IMG/VR virus record: IMGVR_UViG_3300043256_000236
Span: 1-64,000 of that record
Length of the DNA: 64,000 bases
Source of the DNA: a virus
Reading direction: 5' to 3' (one strand)
Positions 9,446-49,479 of this stretch are shown here, one piece after another (position 1 is the first letter of the stretch; the number at the start of each line of letters is the position of its first letter). The notes under the pieces were generated by a model. That model was not told the origin of the DNA and made no database searches. It saw only the letters and a list, made by a program, of their open reading frames with translations. The translations under genes were made by a program, and so were the position numbers.

Positions 9446-10021
9446 TTACCTGTTGTCGCCATCTCCTTTTAATACACCTCTGGCCTTCCTGCTGAATAGT
9501 TTGGCAATATTCTGTACACAAACATCTTCTAAAGTGAAACCACACTTAATAGCCATTTCTTCCACACAGGTGACCACGTGTGTTAGGTGGTTAGGAAGGT
9601 CACTAAATCTCGTGATTTCTCTAGGATCACATCTATATTTGTAGTGCCATGTCTCCAATAGTGCGGCAGCATTCGAAGCTTGTCTATTAAGATGCAAGAC
9701 TAGTCTCGGCAATATGAGACGCCGTATGTTGTGTGTTATGCGTGCAGTTCTCATATCATGTATCATACAAAGGTTAAGGTCACAATCGCAACACACATTA
9801 GCGCAGTACCACATTACGTCACCTAATTCTTTCTTAATATCTTCTCGTCTTTTAGGTGACATTTCGTTGTCATCATCTCTGATAAGCTTCTTTACTTTTT
9901 CAGAAACTTCTCCACATTCTCCAACCAAACCAAGTGCAGGGTATATCATAGTAGCACTTGGTGATTGTAGATATATTGCAACACTGCGAGCGTCTATTTG
10001 GTACTTTTTAAGATCAATCAT
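9446..10021 (-). CDS. MazG-like nucleotide pyrophosphohydrolase
   Basis: A 191-residue protein. The MazG signature is present: GLVGECGEVSEKVKK near residue 31 (E-x-x-E type metal ligands) and KKELGDVMWYCANV near residue 63 (E-x-x-D). These all-alpha NTP pyrophosphatases convert (d)NTPs to (d)NMPs; phage versions may also lower ppGpp. The C-terminal half is longer than a minimal MazG domain and has no recognised motif. Its ATG overlaps the ClpP-like gene stop (ATGA), so the two are translated together. Confidence 0.85.
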   Translation of the reverse strand: MIDLKKYQIDARSVAIYLQSPSATMIYPALGLVGECGEVSEKVKKLIRDDDNEMSPKRREDIKKELGDVMWYCANVCCDCDLNLCMIHDMRTARITHNIRRLILPRLVLHLNRQASNAAALLETWHYKYRCDPREITRFSDLPNHLTHVVTCVEEMAIKCGFTLEDVCVQNIAKLFSRKARGVLKGDGDNR

Positions 10022-10722
10022 TCATCTTCTCCTTCTGTGTATTCGTGTTTGCCTGATTTCATACCAGATTGCCACTTATCGTTTTGTTTGTTTGTTGCGT
10101 GGTACTTATATGGGTCTTGCATGGTTTCGAGAACCCAATCTGCAAGTCCATTATTTACAGCTTGCTCTGCTGTATATATAGTATCTTTTGAGCACAGTTT
10201 TTCTATTTTCTCTAACGTAATCCTAGGTTTAGCAGCTTTCATTCTACTATAATAAATACCATACATTAGTTTACGTGTTTTCTCTACGTGCTTAGCCCAT
10301 GCTTCAACGCTTTTGCATGTACCAGTTAAGTCTTCTGTTCCGTCATGGATCATAAATGTGCAGTGCGGAGCTACTATACGAGAGTCGCATGCTTGTATTA
10401 TTATTGATCCCATGGACATGGCGTGTCCCCAACAGATGCCATATACATGAGATCTTGAAGCTTTAATAGCATCGTACATACTCATGCCATGCAGCCAGTC
10501 GCCCCCTAGGTTGTTCATGTGTATAAAGATTGGTTTAGATGAGATGAGATTCAAATGCAACATGGCTTTGATAAAAAACTCTGACATCTGACAGTCAGTC
10601 CCAGACTCTCCATATCCGCCTTCTGTTTCTGCATCATGTGAACCAACATGGATCATCCGGTTCGATGGTAAGTAGCTGAATTCAAACCATCTGTCAATAT
10701 CCTCTTTAGTATACATGCCCAT
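10018..10722 (-). CDS. ClpP-like serine protease
   Basis: A 234-residue protein with the ClpP/crotonase fold: IHMNNLGGDWLHGMSMYDAI near residue 75, the nucleophile-containing GHAMSMGS near residue 110, and MIHDGTEDLTG near residue 135 carrying the catalytic His. The downstream helices and 'YTAEQAVNNGLADWVL' also match ClpP. ATG at 10722 is used because it overlaps the preceding stop with AAGG upstream. It is not next to the portal, and a separate prohead protease exists at 22546, so it is probably not the capsid protease. It may pair with host Clp unfoldases or act alone; the phage tmRNA tag (KLAA) is a possible source of substrates. Confidence 0.85.
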   Translation of the reverse strand: MGMYTKEDIDRWFEFSYLPSNRMIHVGSHDAETEGGYGESGTDCQMSEFFIKAMLHLNLISSKPIFIHMNNLGGDWLHGMSMYDAIKASRSHVYGICWGHAMSMGSIIIQACDSRIVAPHCTFMIHDGTEDLTGTCKSVEAWAKHVEKTRKLMYGIYYSRMKAAKPRITLEKIEKLCSKDTIYTAEQAVNNGLADWVLETMQDPYKYHATNKQNDKWQSGMKSGKHEYTEGEDE

Positions 10723-11036
10723 CAAACTACCTTACTAACATTAATAGGTAAATCGCAATAATTACATTTTTCTATGTTTTGTATTAGACCAACACAATGC
10801 GGGCATAGGGTCTTTATGGGGCTATTGAGCACATAGAAAACTACTATACCACCAATACATTCGTCACATACGCATATGCCACCCATGACCTGTCGCATGT
10901 TTACAGTTGTTTTTATTTCGCCACAAATATCACACAACAAGTGTTTGTTTGACGATTCTGTTGAGTTTCTCGATAACAACGAGAAAGTGTCCGAAATACA
11001 GGTCGATAAAATCTTTGCGAGTCCATTCATATCCAT
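10722..11036 (-). CDS. Zinc-finger protein
   Basis: A 104-residue protein with three cysteine pairs: CDICGEIKTT near residue 35, CVCDECIGG near residue 54 and CPHCVGL plus CNYCDLPI near residues 78-93, enough for two zinc ribbons. GGAG lies about 8 bases before the start codon. The first 107 bases overlap the preceding gene (10930-11283) in another frame, an unusually long overlap. Function is unknown. Confidence 0.7.
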   Translation of the reverse strand: MDMNGLAKILSTCISDTFSLLSRNSTESSNKHLLCDICGEIKTTVNMRQVMGGICVCDECIGGIVVFYVLNSPIKTLCPHCVGLIQNIEKCNYCDLPINVSKVV

Positions 11037-16631: not shown

Positions 16632-19600
16632 ATGTCAAAAGTAACTCTTAATGAATTACTGCATGGTGATCAAGGAAAGTACGGATACTTATTCCCTTAC
16701 AGGGATCGGGTTCCAGACATAAAGAAACATCTTCTAGATGATTTCAAACAATCCAAATATCCACTAGACCAAACACTTATCAGTAAAATGATGGACATAG
16801 ATTACATCGGGTGGACAGCAAACGTTATACTGGGTATTGATTTGTTTCCTATACAAATTGCCATGCTCCAAATGCTATGGAACACTCCATTTCCAATGCT
16901 CGTAGCCTGTCGGGGAGGATCAAAATCATGGATGCTTGCTGTTTATGCCATTCTTAGGGGTCTTCTTGATCCGGGTTCAAAGATTATTATTATTGGTGCA
17001 GGTTTGCGACAAGCTAGATTGGTTTTCAATTATATAGACACAATATGGGCCAATTCACCAATACTTAGGGGGATTGTCGGTGGAGGAAAAAACGCTGGCC
17101 CAAGGCAGAATGTGGATCTTTGTTATTTTAAGATTGGGGATAGTATTATCTATGCACTTCCCACCGGGGACGGCACGAAAATTAGGGGCTTCCGAGCTTC
17201 TGTGATCATCGCGGACGAATTTGCATGTCTAGATAGAGACACGTTGGTAGAGACAAATAATGGATTAGAAAGAATATCGGATATATCTGATCATAAAACT
17301 AGTGTCATTAATAGATATGGAGATTTCGAACGAATAGATTCCTTTATTAAAACTCCTAAGACCGACGTACATGAAATTTCTACAAAATATGGATATGGAT
17401 TCAAGTGTTCTAGTATACATAAAGTAATGACCACCAATGGGTGGAAATTGGGAAAAGATTTAACTAATAATGATTTTCTAGTTATTAAAAATCAGTATGT
17501 TTTTCCGGAGTGTTCCGCTGATGATTCTATGACTGAAGATATTGCATGGCTGATGGGTTTACTGATCTCTGATGGGGATGTCACTCGCAAGCACGGTGTC
17601 AGCATCAAGACTATCGATCAGGACCTCGTAGAGCAGGTCATAACTAAGTTTGCGGGGTTAAGTCCGAAAGTTTATACCAGAGAAGCATATGTCGATAAAA
17701 GAGGATGGAAATGCCAAAAGTCATATGAGATACATATCCACAACACCCTTTTTAGGGAAAAATTATATTCATTAGGAATAGATTATGTGGGTGTGGCAGA
17801 TAAAGTGATACCATCTATTGTTTTAAAATCTCCGAAAAAGATAGTTATATCCTTCTTGAGTGGTTTGTTCGAAGGAGATGGTTCTTGTTTTTTATGGAAG
17901 GATCGCAACACGACAAAACTCGGTGTTGCTTATTATACTATTTCGGACGCATTGGCACAGGACCTTCAAACCCTCTTGCTGAAACTAGACATTATATCTT
18001 CCAGGCAGACAAGGAGAAGTAAATTAAGTGATAGAAAACAGTGGATGTTAAGATGTAATGGACGCCATGCTCTTAATCTTGCTGAATTATTGAACGTGCC
18101 AAAATGGGACGATATTATACCAAGAGCACAAACATATTTTCACTCAGACGATTACGGTATTACTTTTGACAATGGAAGGGGTAAATGGAGGGCGAATGTC
18201 GAGTATGGTGGAAAATTACATTACTTAGGTAGATATTTTGACAAAAATGATGCACTTGAGTCTGTTAAGAACTTCCAAGCTACGCATGACCCATGTGTTC
18301 GTGTAAAACTAGTAACCAAATTGCCACATCAAGATCATTTATACGACTTCTACTTGCCAATGACACATAGTTTCCATGGCAACGGTTTTATACAACATAA
18401 TTCTGTGCCCGAAGATGTTTTTGACATAGTTGTCCGTGGTTTTGCGGCTACCGCTAAATCTCCCATGGAAGAAGCTAAGAAAATTGCATTTGACAAAAAA
18501 TTGAGTCAAATGGATATTCCTTCCGACATAAAGCAAAAATTGATGGTAGATGATGGCAAGATGCATGGTAACCAAATAGTATATTCTGGTACTGCATATT
18601 ATGCTTTTAATCATTTCGCTAAGAAGCATGAAATGTGGCAGGAAATAATTCGCAGCAAAGGTGATCCAGATAAAATATCTCAAATATTCGGGGGAGACAG
18701 TCTTGTCCCAGATGATTTCAATTATAAGGATTATTGTATTATAAGAATTCCACACACTCATTTACCAGACGGACTATTAGATAAAAGACAATTGGCTCAC
18801 GCCAAAGCAACTCTTCCTCGTAATATATATCTTATGGAATATGGCGCAGTATTCGTTAAGGATTCTGATGGGTTTTTCCCCCGTAGTTTAATAGAGGGGT
18901 GCAGTGTTGGTCCCAACAAACCTTTAGACACACCAGATGGTGCTGTTACATTCTCTCCCGCAATGAGGGGGATTAAGGGTCCCAAGTATGTAATAGGCAT
19001 AGATCCAGCTGCAGAACGAGATAATCTTGCAGTTGTCATAATTGAAGTATGGGCTAATCATTATCGCGTTGTATATTGTTGGGCTGTGAATAAGAAGGAA
19101 TTCATCAAACGGAAAAAACGTGGATTGATTACAGACGATGACTACTACGCATACTGCTGCTCTAGGATCAGAGAGATAGTGCGTCTATTCAATCCTATTC
19201 GTGTTGAGATGGATAGTCAGGGTGGCGGGTATGCCATTGCAGAAATGCTTAGAAACCATAAATTACTAGATACTGATAAGGGCGATTTCCCTATCTATGA
19301 GGTGATTGATTTTGAGGATCCCAAGTCTACAGATGGTGAGACGGACGGACGCCACATCTTACACCTTATTAAACAGAGTTCTGAATTCAATCAAGATGCT
19401 AATATAGCCCTCCATAAAAGCTTTGAAACTCGTACTCTGCTATTCCCAGCTTTTGATAGTGTTAAAATGTACGCGGCCATCGAAGCAGAAAAGGCTTCTG
19501 GTGTAATTTTCGATACATATGAAGAGAATGTCTATAATATCGAAGAATTGAAAAACGAACTTTGTACTATACAAATGAGCGAGACAGCTACGGGTAGAGA

Positions 19601-19901
19601 AAGATTTGATACACCGCAGGTAGTTAGTCCTGGCGCAGTAGAAGGCAGGGCAAGGAAGGGTCGGTTACGCAAAGATAGGTACACGGCTGTTCTATTGGCG
19701 CACAAATATGTTTATGATACAGATATCGCTCCAGACGACAATATCGATTATAACGACGTTGCTGGCAATATCGTGAAAAGAACCAAAACAGGCAAGGATG
19801 AGCCTATGTACCGGGGTGCTGGGGTGGGTAGAATGAGGAATGCAGAGGCTGCGCGTAAAGGGACTATTTACAAAGCCATTAAGAGGGGTAAAGCTGTCTA
19901 G
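16632..19901 (+). CDS. terL: Large terminase subunit (TerL) with intein
   Basis: The 1089-residue precursor contains a 392-residue intein (residues 199-590), so mature TerL is about 697 residues. Walker A-like CRGGSKSWMLA is at about residue 94, and Walker B ASVIIADEFA ends right before the intein. The C-extein resumes with SVPEDVFDIV. The nuclease domain has GIDPAAERDNLAVV near residue 795 and RVEMDSQGGGYAI near residue 857, the acidic residues of the RNase H-like fold. TerL pumps DNA into the prohead and cuts concatemers. The intein sits in the ATPase core, so splicing must happen before packaging. AAAGGTGA precedes the ATG. The portal gene follows after a class B promoter. Confidence 0.95.
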   Translation: MSKVTLNELLHGDQGKYGYLFPYRDRVPDIKKHLLDDFKQSKYPLDQTLISKMMDIDYIGWTANVILGIDLFPIQIAMLQMLWNTPFPMLVACRGGSKSWMLAVYAILRGLLDPGSKIIIIGAGLRQARLVFNYIDTIWANSPILRGIVGGGKNAGPRQNVDLCYFKIGDSIIYALPTGDGTKIRGFRASVIIADEFACLDRDTLVETNNGLERISDISDHKTSVINRYGDFERIDSFIKTPKTDVHEISTKYGYGFKCSSIHKVMTTNGWKLGKDLTNNDFLVIKNQYVFPECSADDSMTEDIAWLMGLLISDGDVTRKHGVSIKTIDQDLVEQVITKFAGLSPKVYTREAYVDKRGWKCQKSYEIHIHNTLFREKLYSLGIDYVGVADKVIPSIVLKSPKKIVISFLSGLFEGDGSCFLWKDRNTTKLGVAYYTISDALAQDLQTLLLKLDIISSRQTRRSKLSDRKQWMLRCNGRHALNLAELLNVPKWDDIIPRAQTYFHSDDYGITFDNGRGKWRANVEYGGKLHYLGRYFDKNDALESVKNFQATHDPCVRVKLVTKLPHQDHLYDFYLPMTHSFHGNGFIQHNSVPEDVFDIVVRGFAATAKSPMEEAKKIAFDKKLSQMDIPSDIKQKLMVDDGKMHGNQIVYSGTAYYAFNHFAKKHEMWQEIIRSKGDPDKISQIFGGDSLVPDDFNYKDYCIIRIPHTHLPDGLLDKRQLAHAKATLPRNIYLMEYGAVFVKDSDGFFPRSLIEGCSVGPNKPLDTPDGAVTFSPAMRGIKGPKYVIGIDPAAERDNLAVVIIEVWANHYRVVYCWAVNKKEFIKRKKRGLITDDDYYAYCCSRIREIVRLFNPIRVEMDSQGGGYAIAEMLRNHKLLDTDKGDFPIYEVIDFEDPKSTDGETDGRHILHLIKQSSEFNQDANIALHKSFETRTLLFPAFDSVKMYAAIEAEKASGVIFDTYEENVYNIEELKNELCTIQMSETATGRERFDTPQVVSPGAVEGRARKGRLRKDRYTAVLLAHKYVYDTDIAPDDNIDYNDVAGNIVKRTKTGKDEPMYRGAGVGRMRNAEAARKGTIYKAIKRGKAV
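17226..18401 (+). mobile_element. Intein with LAGLIDADG endonuclease and AP2-like domain
   Basis: It starts at Cys (CLDRDTLVETNNGLERI, a canonical intein block A) and ends IQHN followed by Ser, the canonical His-Asn / Ser splice junction. Two LAGLIDADG motifs lie at WLMGLLISDGDV (about 17547-17582) and FLSGLFEGDGSC (about 17850-17886). After them, about 18150-18285 encodes an AP2-like DNA-binding module: GITFDNGRGKWRANV, then HYLGRYFDKNDALESV. AP2 modules usually accompany HNH homing enzymes rather than inteins. Insertion directly after the Walker B DEFA is at a conserved site, as is usual for inteins. Confidence 0.9.
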
Positions 19902-47121: not shown

Positions 47122-47277
47122 ATGGCAGATAAGATTGAGATGATTTCTATTCCTCAAAAGGAATATGATCAGCTAGTAAGTGATCAAAGATGGTTGGCAG
47201 CTCTGGAGGCTGCTGGGATTGACAACTGGGATGGGTGCGACATAGCGCGTGAAGCCATGTCCGAGTATGGTAATTGA
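47122..47277 (+). CDS. Small acidic protein
   Basis: A 51-residue protein (begins MADKIEMISIPQKEYDQLVS). GGGAG sits seven bases before the ATG. It has a helical acidic core with two Trp-containing segments. The pattern 'I-P-x-x-E-Y-D-x-L' is like small phage proteins with an N-terminal coiled segment. It is short but has a good start signal and a promoter upstream. Confidence 0.6.
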   Translation: MADKIEMISIPQKEYDQLVSDQRWLAALEAAGIDNWDGCDIAREAMSEYGN

Positions 47278-47403: not shown

Positions 47404-47755
47404 GGGGCTGAAAGGTTTCGACAGGGTAAGTGAAGATTATGTGGCGTGCCGAGGTTGTCAGTGGGCCTCGTTAAACAACTGATAAAAAAGTCTTAAACGG
47501 CGAATCCAAGTTCAAATTGGCTGCGTAGCAGCCCGTCAACCAGAAGACGCCTACTATTCTGCAAGACGACGACCAGTTGGCTAGTGTTTGTTTGATACCT
47601 AACCGAATTAACGCGAAACAATAGTTGGGCATGGAAAAACAAAAGCCTGTCGATTGGCGTTTGTGGCTTCGAGATTTAAACAATCGAATATGCACGTAGA
47701 AGGCATGATTTAATCTATTCCTGGACCCGACTTTCGAAAGTCGGCAGCTCCACCA
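47404..47755 (+). ncRNA. ssrA: Transfer-messenger RNA (tmRNA)
   Basis: A 352-nt RNA of standard one-piece length. The 5' end GGGGCTG...GGTTTCGACAGGG and the 3' end, with a T-arm (CCGAC TTTCGAA loop AGTCGG) and CAGCTCC-A-CCA, pair to form the tRNA-like acceptor; CCA is encoded. The tag frame ends at 47526-47528 (TAG) and reads ...G-E-S-K-F-K-L-A-A, preceded by AAC and TTA; the resume codon is either GGC at 47499 or TTA at 47493. The KLAA end is a typical ClpXP degron. tmRNA with SmpB rescues stalled ribosomes and tags the product for proteolysis. A phage copy is unusual. Confidence 0.93.
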
Positions 47756-47834
47756 GGGCAGTTAGTTCAATAGGTAGAACGCAACCCAGCAGGACCAAGG
47801 GTTGAGGTTGTAGGTTCGAATCCTTCACTGCCCA
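47756..47834 (+). tRNA. tRNA-like RNA with enlarged anticodon loop
   Basis: It abuts the tmRNA 3' CCA. The acceptor stem GGGCAGT / ACTGCCC, D-arm GTTC-AATAGGTA-GAAC and T-arm with TTCGAAT loop are normal. The anticodon arm is not: CAACCC and GGGTTG pair around an 11-nt loop (AGCAGGACCAA), with no U33-like T. The identity cannot be assigned. It could be a shifted-decoding tRNA, a tRNA with a tiny intron, or a decayed gene. Confidence 0.65.
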
Positions 47835-48513: not shown

Positions 48514-49479
48514 ATGATGGAAGTTTCTGAACATACATGTGATGTCGTTGAAATTAAGCTACGAATCCACTCAAACGCAGATGCGTTGAGCCTGGTTCAT
48601 GTGGGTGATTTTCAGTGTGCCGTAAGAACTGCTGATTGGAAAGATGGCGATCTTGCTATCTATATTCCACCAGACAGTATTGTGCCAGACACAAAAGAGT
48701 TTGAATTCTTGGGCGAACACAAAAGGATTAAAGCTAGGAAATTGCGTGGTGAGTGGTCTGTCGGATTGTTAATACCTGCACCGTCCGATGCCAAGATTGG
48801 TGACGATTACATGGAAAAGTTGGGGATCACGCATTATGAACCACAAATCCATGGACATTTTAGTACAGGTGGAGACAATGTTACACCCCCAGAGGGATTT
48901 TTCCCTAAATATGACGTATTGAACTTCCGTAGATATTCCGAGTTTTTCGAGGAGGGTGAAGAAGTAATTGTTACCGAAAAATTACACGGAGCTAATGCTC
49001 GCTTTGTTTGTATAGACGATCTTATATATTGTGGATCTCGTAACCATTGGAAAAAAGAAGATCCCAACAATCTATGGTGGAAAGCACTGAAGAACTGCCA
49101 AGTGTTAGATGCGTGGCTTAGGCATCATCAGAATCTAATAGTATACGGAGAGGTGTTCGGTCAAGTCCAGAACTTGAAATATGGAGCTTTGCCTGGAGAG
49201 GTTAAGTTTGCAGCTTTCGATATTCTCAGGGGTGATAAGTGGCTAGATTTTGATGAAGCTCATGAGGTTGGTGCTCCATTGCCATGGGTTCCACTTGTCT
49301 ATCGTGGTTCGTTTGACAAAGAGCAAATTCTGACATTAGCCGAAGGAGACTCTAGTTACCCAGGTGCGCAGCATCATCGCGAAGGTGTCGTAGTTAAACC
49401 AATACACGAACGTACGGAAAGAAAAATAGGAAGGCTGCAACTTAAAATAGTTGGAAATAGGTATTTGTCAAAATCATGA
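48514..49479 (+). CDS. RNA ligase (Rnl5/DraRnl-like, with OB domain)
   Basis: A 321-residue protein. The N-terminal 100 residues form an OB-like domain (VGDFQCAVRTADWKDGDLA; YIPPDSIVP). Nucleotidyltransferase motif I is TEKLHGANARF with catalytic Lys at about residue 156; motif III-like IVYGEVFGQ and FAAFDI, motif IV EGVVVKP and motif V LQLKIVG follow. An N-terminal OB then ligase order is that of DraRnl-type ligases. It joins RNA ends using ATP, and may repair tRNAs cut by host anticodon nucleases. AGGAGG precedes the ATG. Confidence 0.9.
   Translation: MMEVSEHTCDVVEIKLRIHSNADALSLVHVGDFQCAVRTADWKDGDLAIYIPPDSIVPDTKEFEFLGEHKRIKARKLRGEWSVGLLIPAPSDAKIGDDYMEKLGITHYEPQIHGHFSTGGDNVTPPEGFFPKYDVLNFRRYSEFFEEGEEVIVTEKLHGANARFVCIDDLIYCGSRNHWKKEDPNNLWWKALKNCQVLDAWLRHHQNLIVYGEVFGQVQNLKYGALPGEVKFAAFDILRGDKWLDFDEAHEVGAPLPWVPLVYRGSFDKEQILTLAEGDSSYPGAQHHREGVVVKPIHERTERKIGRLQLKIVGNRYLSKS

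What the first reader, a model, noticed from the sequence alone, without database searches (positions are those of the whole stretch)
47404..47755. Phage-encoded tmRNA, with a ClpP-like protease in the same genome
All landmarks of a complete one-piece tmRNA are present, including encoded CCA and a tag ending KLAA-stop. The ClpP homologue at 10018 is separate from the prohead protease. A phage that supplies both the tag and a protease could direct degradation during infection. The upstream codon UUA in the usual resume position, or a shifted GGC start, makes the tag itself unusual.
Basis: partly seen in the sequence, partly recalled or inferred. Interest (0 to 1): 0.75.

Follow-up and report, generated by a model that had tools for sequence, protein, structure and literature searches.

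The report
Phage-specific tmRNA with altered tag
This uncultured phage really carries a complete gene for tmRNA, the RNA that frees stuck ribosomes and marks unfinished proteins; phage tmRNAs are already known, but this one belongs to a phage-only lineage with a remodelled tRNA-like elbow and an unusual, positively charged tag, and nothing shows that it works as a pair with the phage's ClpP-like proteins.

Summary
A full-length one-piece tmRNA lies at 47404-47755 (+): Rfam RF00023, 124 bits, E 5e-48, every landmark present. ARAGORN misses it but calls two of its relatives. The tag is GESKFKLAA, resuming at GGC (47499).

Five related phage tmRNAs form one clade, with 18 base pairs changed on both sides, so the RNA is under selection. 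Two features set the clade apart. Four of five have an 8-nt T-loop, against 7 nt in 105 of 105 bacterial tmRNAs read. All five tags carry Lys/Arg where 118 of 118 bacterial tags carry Ala.

The pairing with ClpP is weak. Two ClpP paralogues occur in all ten large related records searched, most of which lack a tmRNA; no SmpB and no Clp unfoldase was found. Most likely it is a ribosome-rescue RNA using host SmpB, in a block of tRNA and RNA-ligase genes. Phage tmRNAs are known; this is a distinctive variant.

The parts
47404..47755 (+). one-piece tmRNA gene (ssrA), 352 nt
   Evidence: RF00023 124 bits, E 5e-48, model 1-374 of 374
47404..47410 (+). acceptor stem 5' strand GGGGCUG, pairs with 47745-47751 including the G3-U alanine-identity pair
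   Evidence: two of its seven pairs show two-sided changes among five phage tmRNAs, G3-U kept in all
47411..47415 (+). D-loop segment AAAGG (ACUGG in most of the bacterial tmRNAs read)
47494..47498 (+). UAAAC, the five bases before the resume codon, invariant in the five phage tmRNAs
47499..47528 (+). tag reading frame GGC GAA TCC AAG TTC AAA TTG GCT GCG TAG = GESKFKLAA-stop (non-coded Ala precedes it)
   Evidence: same position called by ARAGORN in relatives L039 and L159
47727..47744 (+). T arm CCGAC-UUUCGAAA-GUCGG with an 8-nt loop (47732-47739); the whole arm is a perfect 18-nt palindrome
47753..47755 (+). encoded CCA end
47756..47834 (+). tRNA-like gene directly abutting the tmRNA with no spacer; anticodon loop enlarged, so no normal anticodon can be read
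   Evidence: RF00005 58 bits; missed by ARAGORN
48514..49479 (+). ATP-dependent RNA ligase (DRB0094 type), conserved neighbour of the tmRNA
   Evidence: TIGR02306 162.7 bits, cut-off 151.15; near the tmRNA in L187, L193 and L040
48133..48489 (+). conserved small ORF between tmRNA and RNA ligase
   Evidence: found next to the tmRNA in all four relatives with tmRNA
47122..47277 (+). small ORF upstream of the tmRNA; its homologue in G012 stands at the same place without a tmRNA
10018..10725 (-). ClpP-A, ClpP-like protein with Ser104, His127 and the aligned Asp
   Evidence: PF00574 97.5 bits; alignments. Not shown to be functionally linked to the tmRNA

Best explanation
The gene makes a working tmRNA of a phage-specific lineage. 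After maturation it is charged with alanine by the host AlaRS (shown: the G3-U pair; inferred: charging), binds host SmpB and EF-Tu (inferred; no phage SmpB was found), enters ribosomes stalled on broken or non-stop mRNAs, and re-registers translation at GGC after UAAAC to add Ala-GESKFKLAA. The ribosome is released at UAG and the tagged fragment goes to cellular proteolysis through its hydrophobic LAA end. Its likely benefit is faster recycling of ribosomes during infection, when many mRNAs are cut. This fits its place in a block of tRNA genes and RNA-ligase genes (translation upkeep and RNA repair). Within this lineage the tag and the T-loop/D-loop elbow have moved away from the bacterial norm, probably tuning SmpB binding or protease choice. 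The ClpP-like proteins are a separate trait, general in the phage group.
For: Covariance match over the full model. 346 of 380 pair cells formed and 18 pairs changed on both sides across five phage tmRNAs, including the acceptor stem and T-stem. Invariant UAAAC-GGC-GAA and an LAA or MAA end in all five. ARAGORN calls two relatives as tmRNAs with tags GEARLKMAA and GESQFRMAA. One clade with support 99. Conserved neighbourhood next to an RNA ligase and ten further tRNA genes nearby. Published: the resume codon is mostly Ala and sometimes Gly, and the five upstream bases set the frame (PMC3968760).
Against: No expression or charging data. Four of five phage tmRNAs depart from the 7-nt T-loop, and T-loop/D-loop contacts are needed for SmpB binding (PMC3968760), so weaker SmpB binding is possible. 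Host unknown: the tag layout is Bacteroidota-like, but the phage genes use Shine-Dalgarno motifs (40 of 91 against 8.7% at random positions), which from general knowledge is not typical of Bacteroidota. The single-strand folding z-score is only -1.9, as may happen with pseudoknotted RNAs.
Confidence: 0.75

Rival explanations
1. A coupled phage system: the phage tmRNA adds a private tag that the phage's own ClpP-A/ClpP-B protease (with a host or unknown unfoldase) recognises, so that the phage steers degradation of host or stalled proteins.
For: Phage-specific tag with Lys/Arg at position 6 in all five lineages. Two ClpP paralogues in each large relative: one with Ser-His-Asp, one with Ser-His-Thr that keeps the Tyr-x-Tyr of the unfoldase-docking strand (docking role from general knowledge).
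Against: ClpP pair in all ten large related records, tmRNA in four of them (three species). No AAA_2 (ClpX/ClpA-type) unfoldase and no SmpB. The genes lie about 37 kb apart or more. Both ClpPs score far below the curated cut-offs for ATP-dependent ClpP.
Confidence: 0.1
2. A decoy: the phage tmRNA with altered elbow binds or occupies host factors (SmpB, AlaRS) or tags with a poorly degraded peptide, dampening host trans-translation.
For: 8-nt T-loop and changed D-loop segment. A molecule like the TLD-only phage tmRNA of DS6A is reported to inhibit tmRNA strongly, perhaps by titrating SmpB (PMC4131195).
Against: The whole tag frame, stop codon, all pseudoknot stems and UAAAC-GGC are kept, many under covariation; a decoy would not need them.
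Confidence: 0.1
3. A decaying or passenger tmRNA captured from a bacterium.
For: Patchy presence in the phage group.
Against: Two-sided pair changes across five divergent lineages, conserved tag frame, long phage-only stem in the tree.
Confidence: 0.03

Closest known systems
Bacterial one-piece tmRNA of Bacteroidota (for example Flavobacterium, tag GENNYALAA)
   Same: UAAAC|GGC|GAA resume layout, 9-residue tag ending LAA, acceptor and pseudoknot plan
   Different: Tag middle (S/A-K/R/Q-F/L-K/R against mostly N/D-N-Y-A), 8-nt T-loop in four of five, D-loop AAAGG, CCA encoded in four of five against 3 of about 106; phage tmRNAs branch apart from all bacterial ones sampled
Known phage-encoded tmRNAs (mycobacteriophages Bxz1, Wildcat; Bacillus phage G; Melnitz; huge phages)
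   Same: A phage carries ssrA; use of host factors presumed
   Different: No blastn match in 50,697 phage records; phage G tag AKLNITNNELQVA; other viral-contig tmRNAs found here end AFALAA or AYAQAA and those read have 7-nt T-loops. Some huge phages also carry SmpB (PMC7162821); none was found here
ATP-dependent ClpP and ClpP-related head maturation proteases
   Same: PF00574 family, catalytic Ser and His, Asp kept in ClpP-A
   Different: Below every NCBIfam cut-off for either class; two paralogues per phage, ClpP-B with Thr in place of Asp

Membership tests
tmRNA (RF00023) | Covariance model match above the curated cut-off over the full length | tested here: met
   124 bits against 47, 1-374 of 374
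tmRNA (RF00023) | Alanine-type acceptor stem with G3-U pair | tested here: met
   G3-U in all five phage tmRNAs
tmRNA (RF00023) | tRNA-like T arm (5-bp stem and loop) | tested here: met
   5-bp stem kept by two-sided changes. The loop is 8 nt in window, L038, L040, L159 and 7 nt in L039, against 7 nt in all bacterial ones parsed: the usual loop length is not met, but it is a usual trait and not a strict criterion of the family
tmRNA (RF00023) | Tag frame with resume codon, hydrophobic end and stop | tested here: met
   GGC start, KLAA-UAG; frame conserved in five lineages
tmRNA (RF00023) | Pseudoknots PK1-PK4 and helix 5 | tested here: met
   (stems tested; the knotted topology itself is inferred)
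tmRNA (RF00023) | Function with SmpB | not testable with these tools
   no SmpB in the phage or nine related records; host unknown
ATP-dependent ClpP protease | PF00574 match | tested here: met
   ClpP-A 97.5 bits; ClpP-B about 115 bits
ATP-dependent ClpP protease | Curated ClpP model cut-off | tested here: not met
   81.1 and 99.4 bits against 249 for NF001368; 63.0 and 80.5 against 308.6 for TIGR00493
ATP-dependent ClpP protease | Ser-His-Asp triad | tested here: inconclusive
   complete in ClpP-A, Asp replaced by Thr in ClpP-B
ATP-dependent ClpP protease | Partner unfoldase in the same genome | tested here: not met
   no PF07724 in eleven related records; a host ClpX cannot be excluded
ClpP-related head maturation protease | Curated model cut-off (NF045542) | tested here: not met
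   79.4 and 61.4 against 120; PHROGs do match head maturation proteases first

The most novel reading that the evidence does not exclude
The clade is a private trans-translation channel: the altered elbow prefers a particular SmpB state or host, and the Lys/Arg-bearing tag directs products to, or away from, a particular protease, possibly a phage ClpP-A/ClpP-B hetero-complex.
Probability: 0.12. Interest if true: 0.8.

Novelty: new variant of a known kind. Interest (0 to 1): 0.42.

Why it matters
Censuses of phage tmRNAs have leaned on ARAGORN (402 of 18,146 phage genomes, PMC9004378; also used for the huge phages). ARAGORN misses three of the five members of this clade, so such lists are probably undercounts. 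The clade also gives a natural series, four 8-nt and one 7-nt T-loop with D-loop changes, for asking which elbow contacts SmpB needs, and a natural test of which tag residues steer tagged proteins to proteases.

Tried and rejected
UUA as resume codon: rejected, because UAAAC-GGC-GAA is invariant while the bases further upstream vary, and bacterial tmRNAs and ARAGORN place the start at GGC. A tmRNA remnant in the near relative G010 (16-nt match): rejected, because it lies in a stretch that shows no other tmRNA feature and looks like coding sequence. Remnants at the syntenic sites of G002 and G012: none found, even with lax thresholds. Bacteroidota as certain donor or host: not accepted, because the tree leaves the phage clade apart on a long stem and the phage genes use Shine-Dalgarno motifs. 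Blastn against known phages: no match. A scan by the RNA ligase gave only two loci. Structure prediction of the ClpPs was not run: it would not decide a link with the tmRNA.

Full report
What is there. Rfam's tmRNA model matches window 47404-47755 (+) over its whole length with 124 bits. The window is the first 64 kb of a 122,944-base viral contig. The same gene, letter for letter, is in a 165.5-kb contig of what is probably the same phage. ARAGORN reports ten tRNA genes in the window but not this tmRNA, nor the tRNA-like gene that abuts it.

The tag. The frame ending in UAG at 47526-47528 reads back as GGC GAA TCC AAG TTC AAA TTG GCT GCG, GESKFKLAA. ARAGORN reads those tested, and two of the phage relatives, as starting at GGC. 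The start is therefore ordinary. The middle is not: phage tags are GESKFKLAA, GEARFRMAA, GEARLKMAA, GESRFKMAA and GESQFRMAA, with Lys/Arg at position 6 in all five, where 118 of 118 bacterial tags have Ala. This is not a general phage trait: other viral-contig tmRNAs read here end AFALAA or AYAQAA.

The elbow. Four of five phage tmRNAs have an 8-nt T-loop (UUUCGAAA, UUUCGAAU, UCUCGGAU twice); the fifth, L039, has 7 nt. All 105 bacterial tmRNAs whose T arm could be parsed have 7 nt, as have the other viral tmRNAs read by eye. The 5-bp T-stem is held by two-sided changes. Inside the loop, positions 2 and 6 read U-A in two lineages and C-G in two, which may be a pair (inference). The D-loop segment before GG is AAA or AUA against ACU in most bacteria. 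In the tree the phage tmRNAs are one clade (99), with L039 outside the other four (95), so one change of T-loop length suffices.

Is it functional? Across the five sequences 346 of 380 pair cells are formed and 18 pairs changed on both sides (hand-corrected alignment of five rows; the PK1 GAGG/CCUC stem was entered one base out of register there, which lowers the count of formed cells). That is hard to explain without selection on the RNA. SmpB is not found in this phage or nine relatives, so the host's would be needed. Processing, charging and tagging are inferred.

Setting. The tmRNA stands between an NAD-dependent DNA ligase and small ORFs on one side and a conserved small ORF and RNA ligase on the other. 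Relatives without tmRNA keep the flanking genes (G002, G012), with no detectable remnant. It is thus an accessory gene at a conserved place. The annotated relatives of the phage are remote: the portal matches only Bacillus phage G, at 23% identity. Phage G has its own tmRNA, with a different tag.

ClpP. The protein at 10018-10725 is a ClpP homologue with an intact triad. A second paralogue lies outside the window at 117864-118367 of the contig; it has Thr at the Asp position in all the copies read. Both occur in all ten large related records searched, while the tmRNA occurs in four of those ten records, that is three species, plus G018 and a fragment. Three other tmRNA-bearing phage records have no ClpP. 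No AAA_2 unfoldase was found. Both ClpPs stay below curated cut-offs for ATP-dependent ClpP and for head maturation protease. Neither gene lies in the portal-capsid stretch, which argues against, but does not exclude, a head protease. The proposed tag-plus-protease partnership is therefore possible but unsupported.

Known or new. Phage tmRNAs were listed in 2014 (PMC4131195), counted at 402 of 18,146 phage genomes (PMC9004378), and reported with SmpB in huge phages (PMC7162821). The idea that a phage might tag and degrade host proteins is also published (PMC9004378). What is new here is a lineage with a remodelled elbow and a basic tag, largely invisible to ARAGORN.

Noticed in passing
contig position 117864-118367 (outside the window; L185:5823-6455 -): Second ClpP paralogue, Ser and His kept, catalytic Asp replaced by Thr in all copies read; found with ClpP-A in all ten large related phages, which suggests a two-subunit ClpP.
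   Followed up: partly
47756-47834: tRNA-like gene starting at the base after the tmRNA's CCA, with an anticodon loop enlarged by about six bases; an odd tRNA or a remnant.
   Followed up: partly
16632-19901: Large terminase interrupted by an endonuclease-like insert around residues 200-590, probably an intein.
   Followed up: no
L184:11048-13972 and L182:16842-19769: Ribonucleotide reductase and a glycosyltransferase, each with a LAGLIDADG/intein-like insert.
   Followed up: no
L185:9473-10942: BrxL-like Lon-related ATPase (TIGR02688, 433 bits against 329.3) at the contig end.
   Followed up: no
L183:1848-3716 and L183:13798-16173: DNA polymerase III alpha appears split into two separate ORFs about 10 kb apart.
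   Followed up: no
L204:about 1968-2238 (224-kb viral contig): Another phage tmRNA-like sequence with a similar PK1 but a 7-nt T-loop, not called by ARAGORN.
   Followed up: partly
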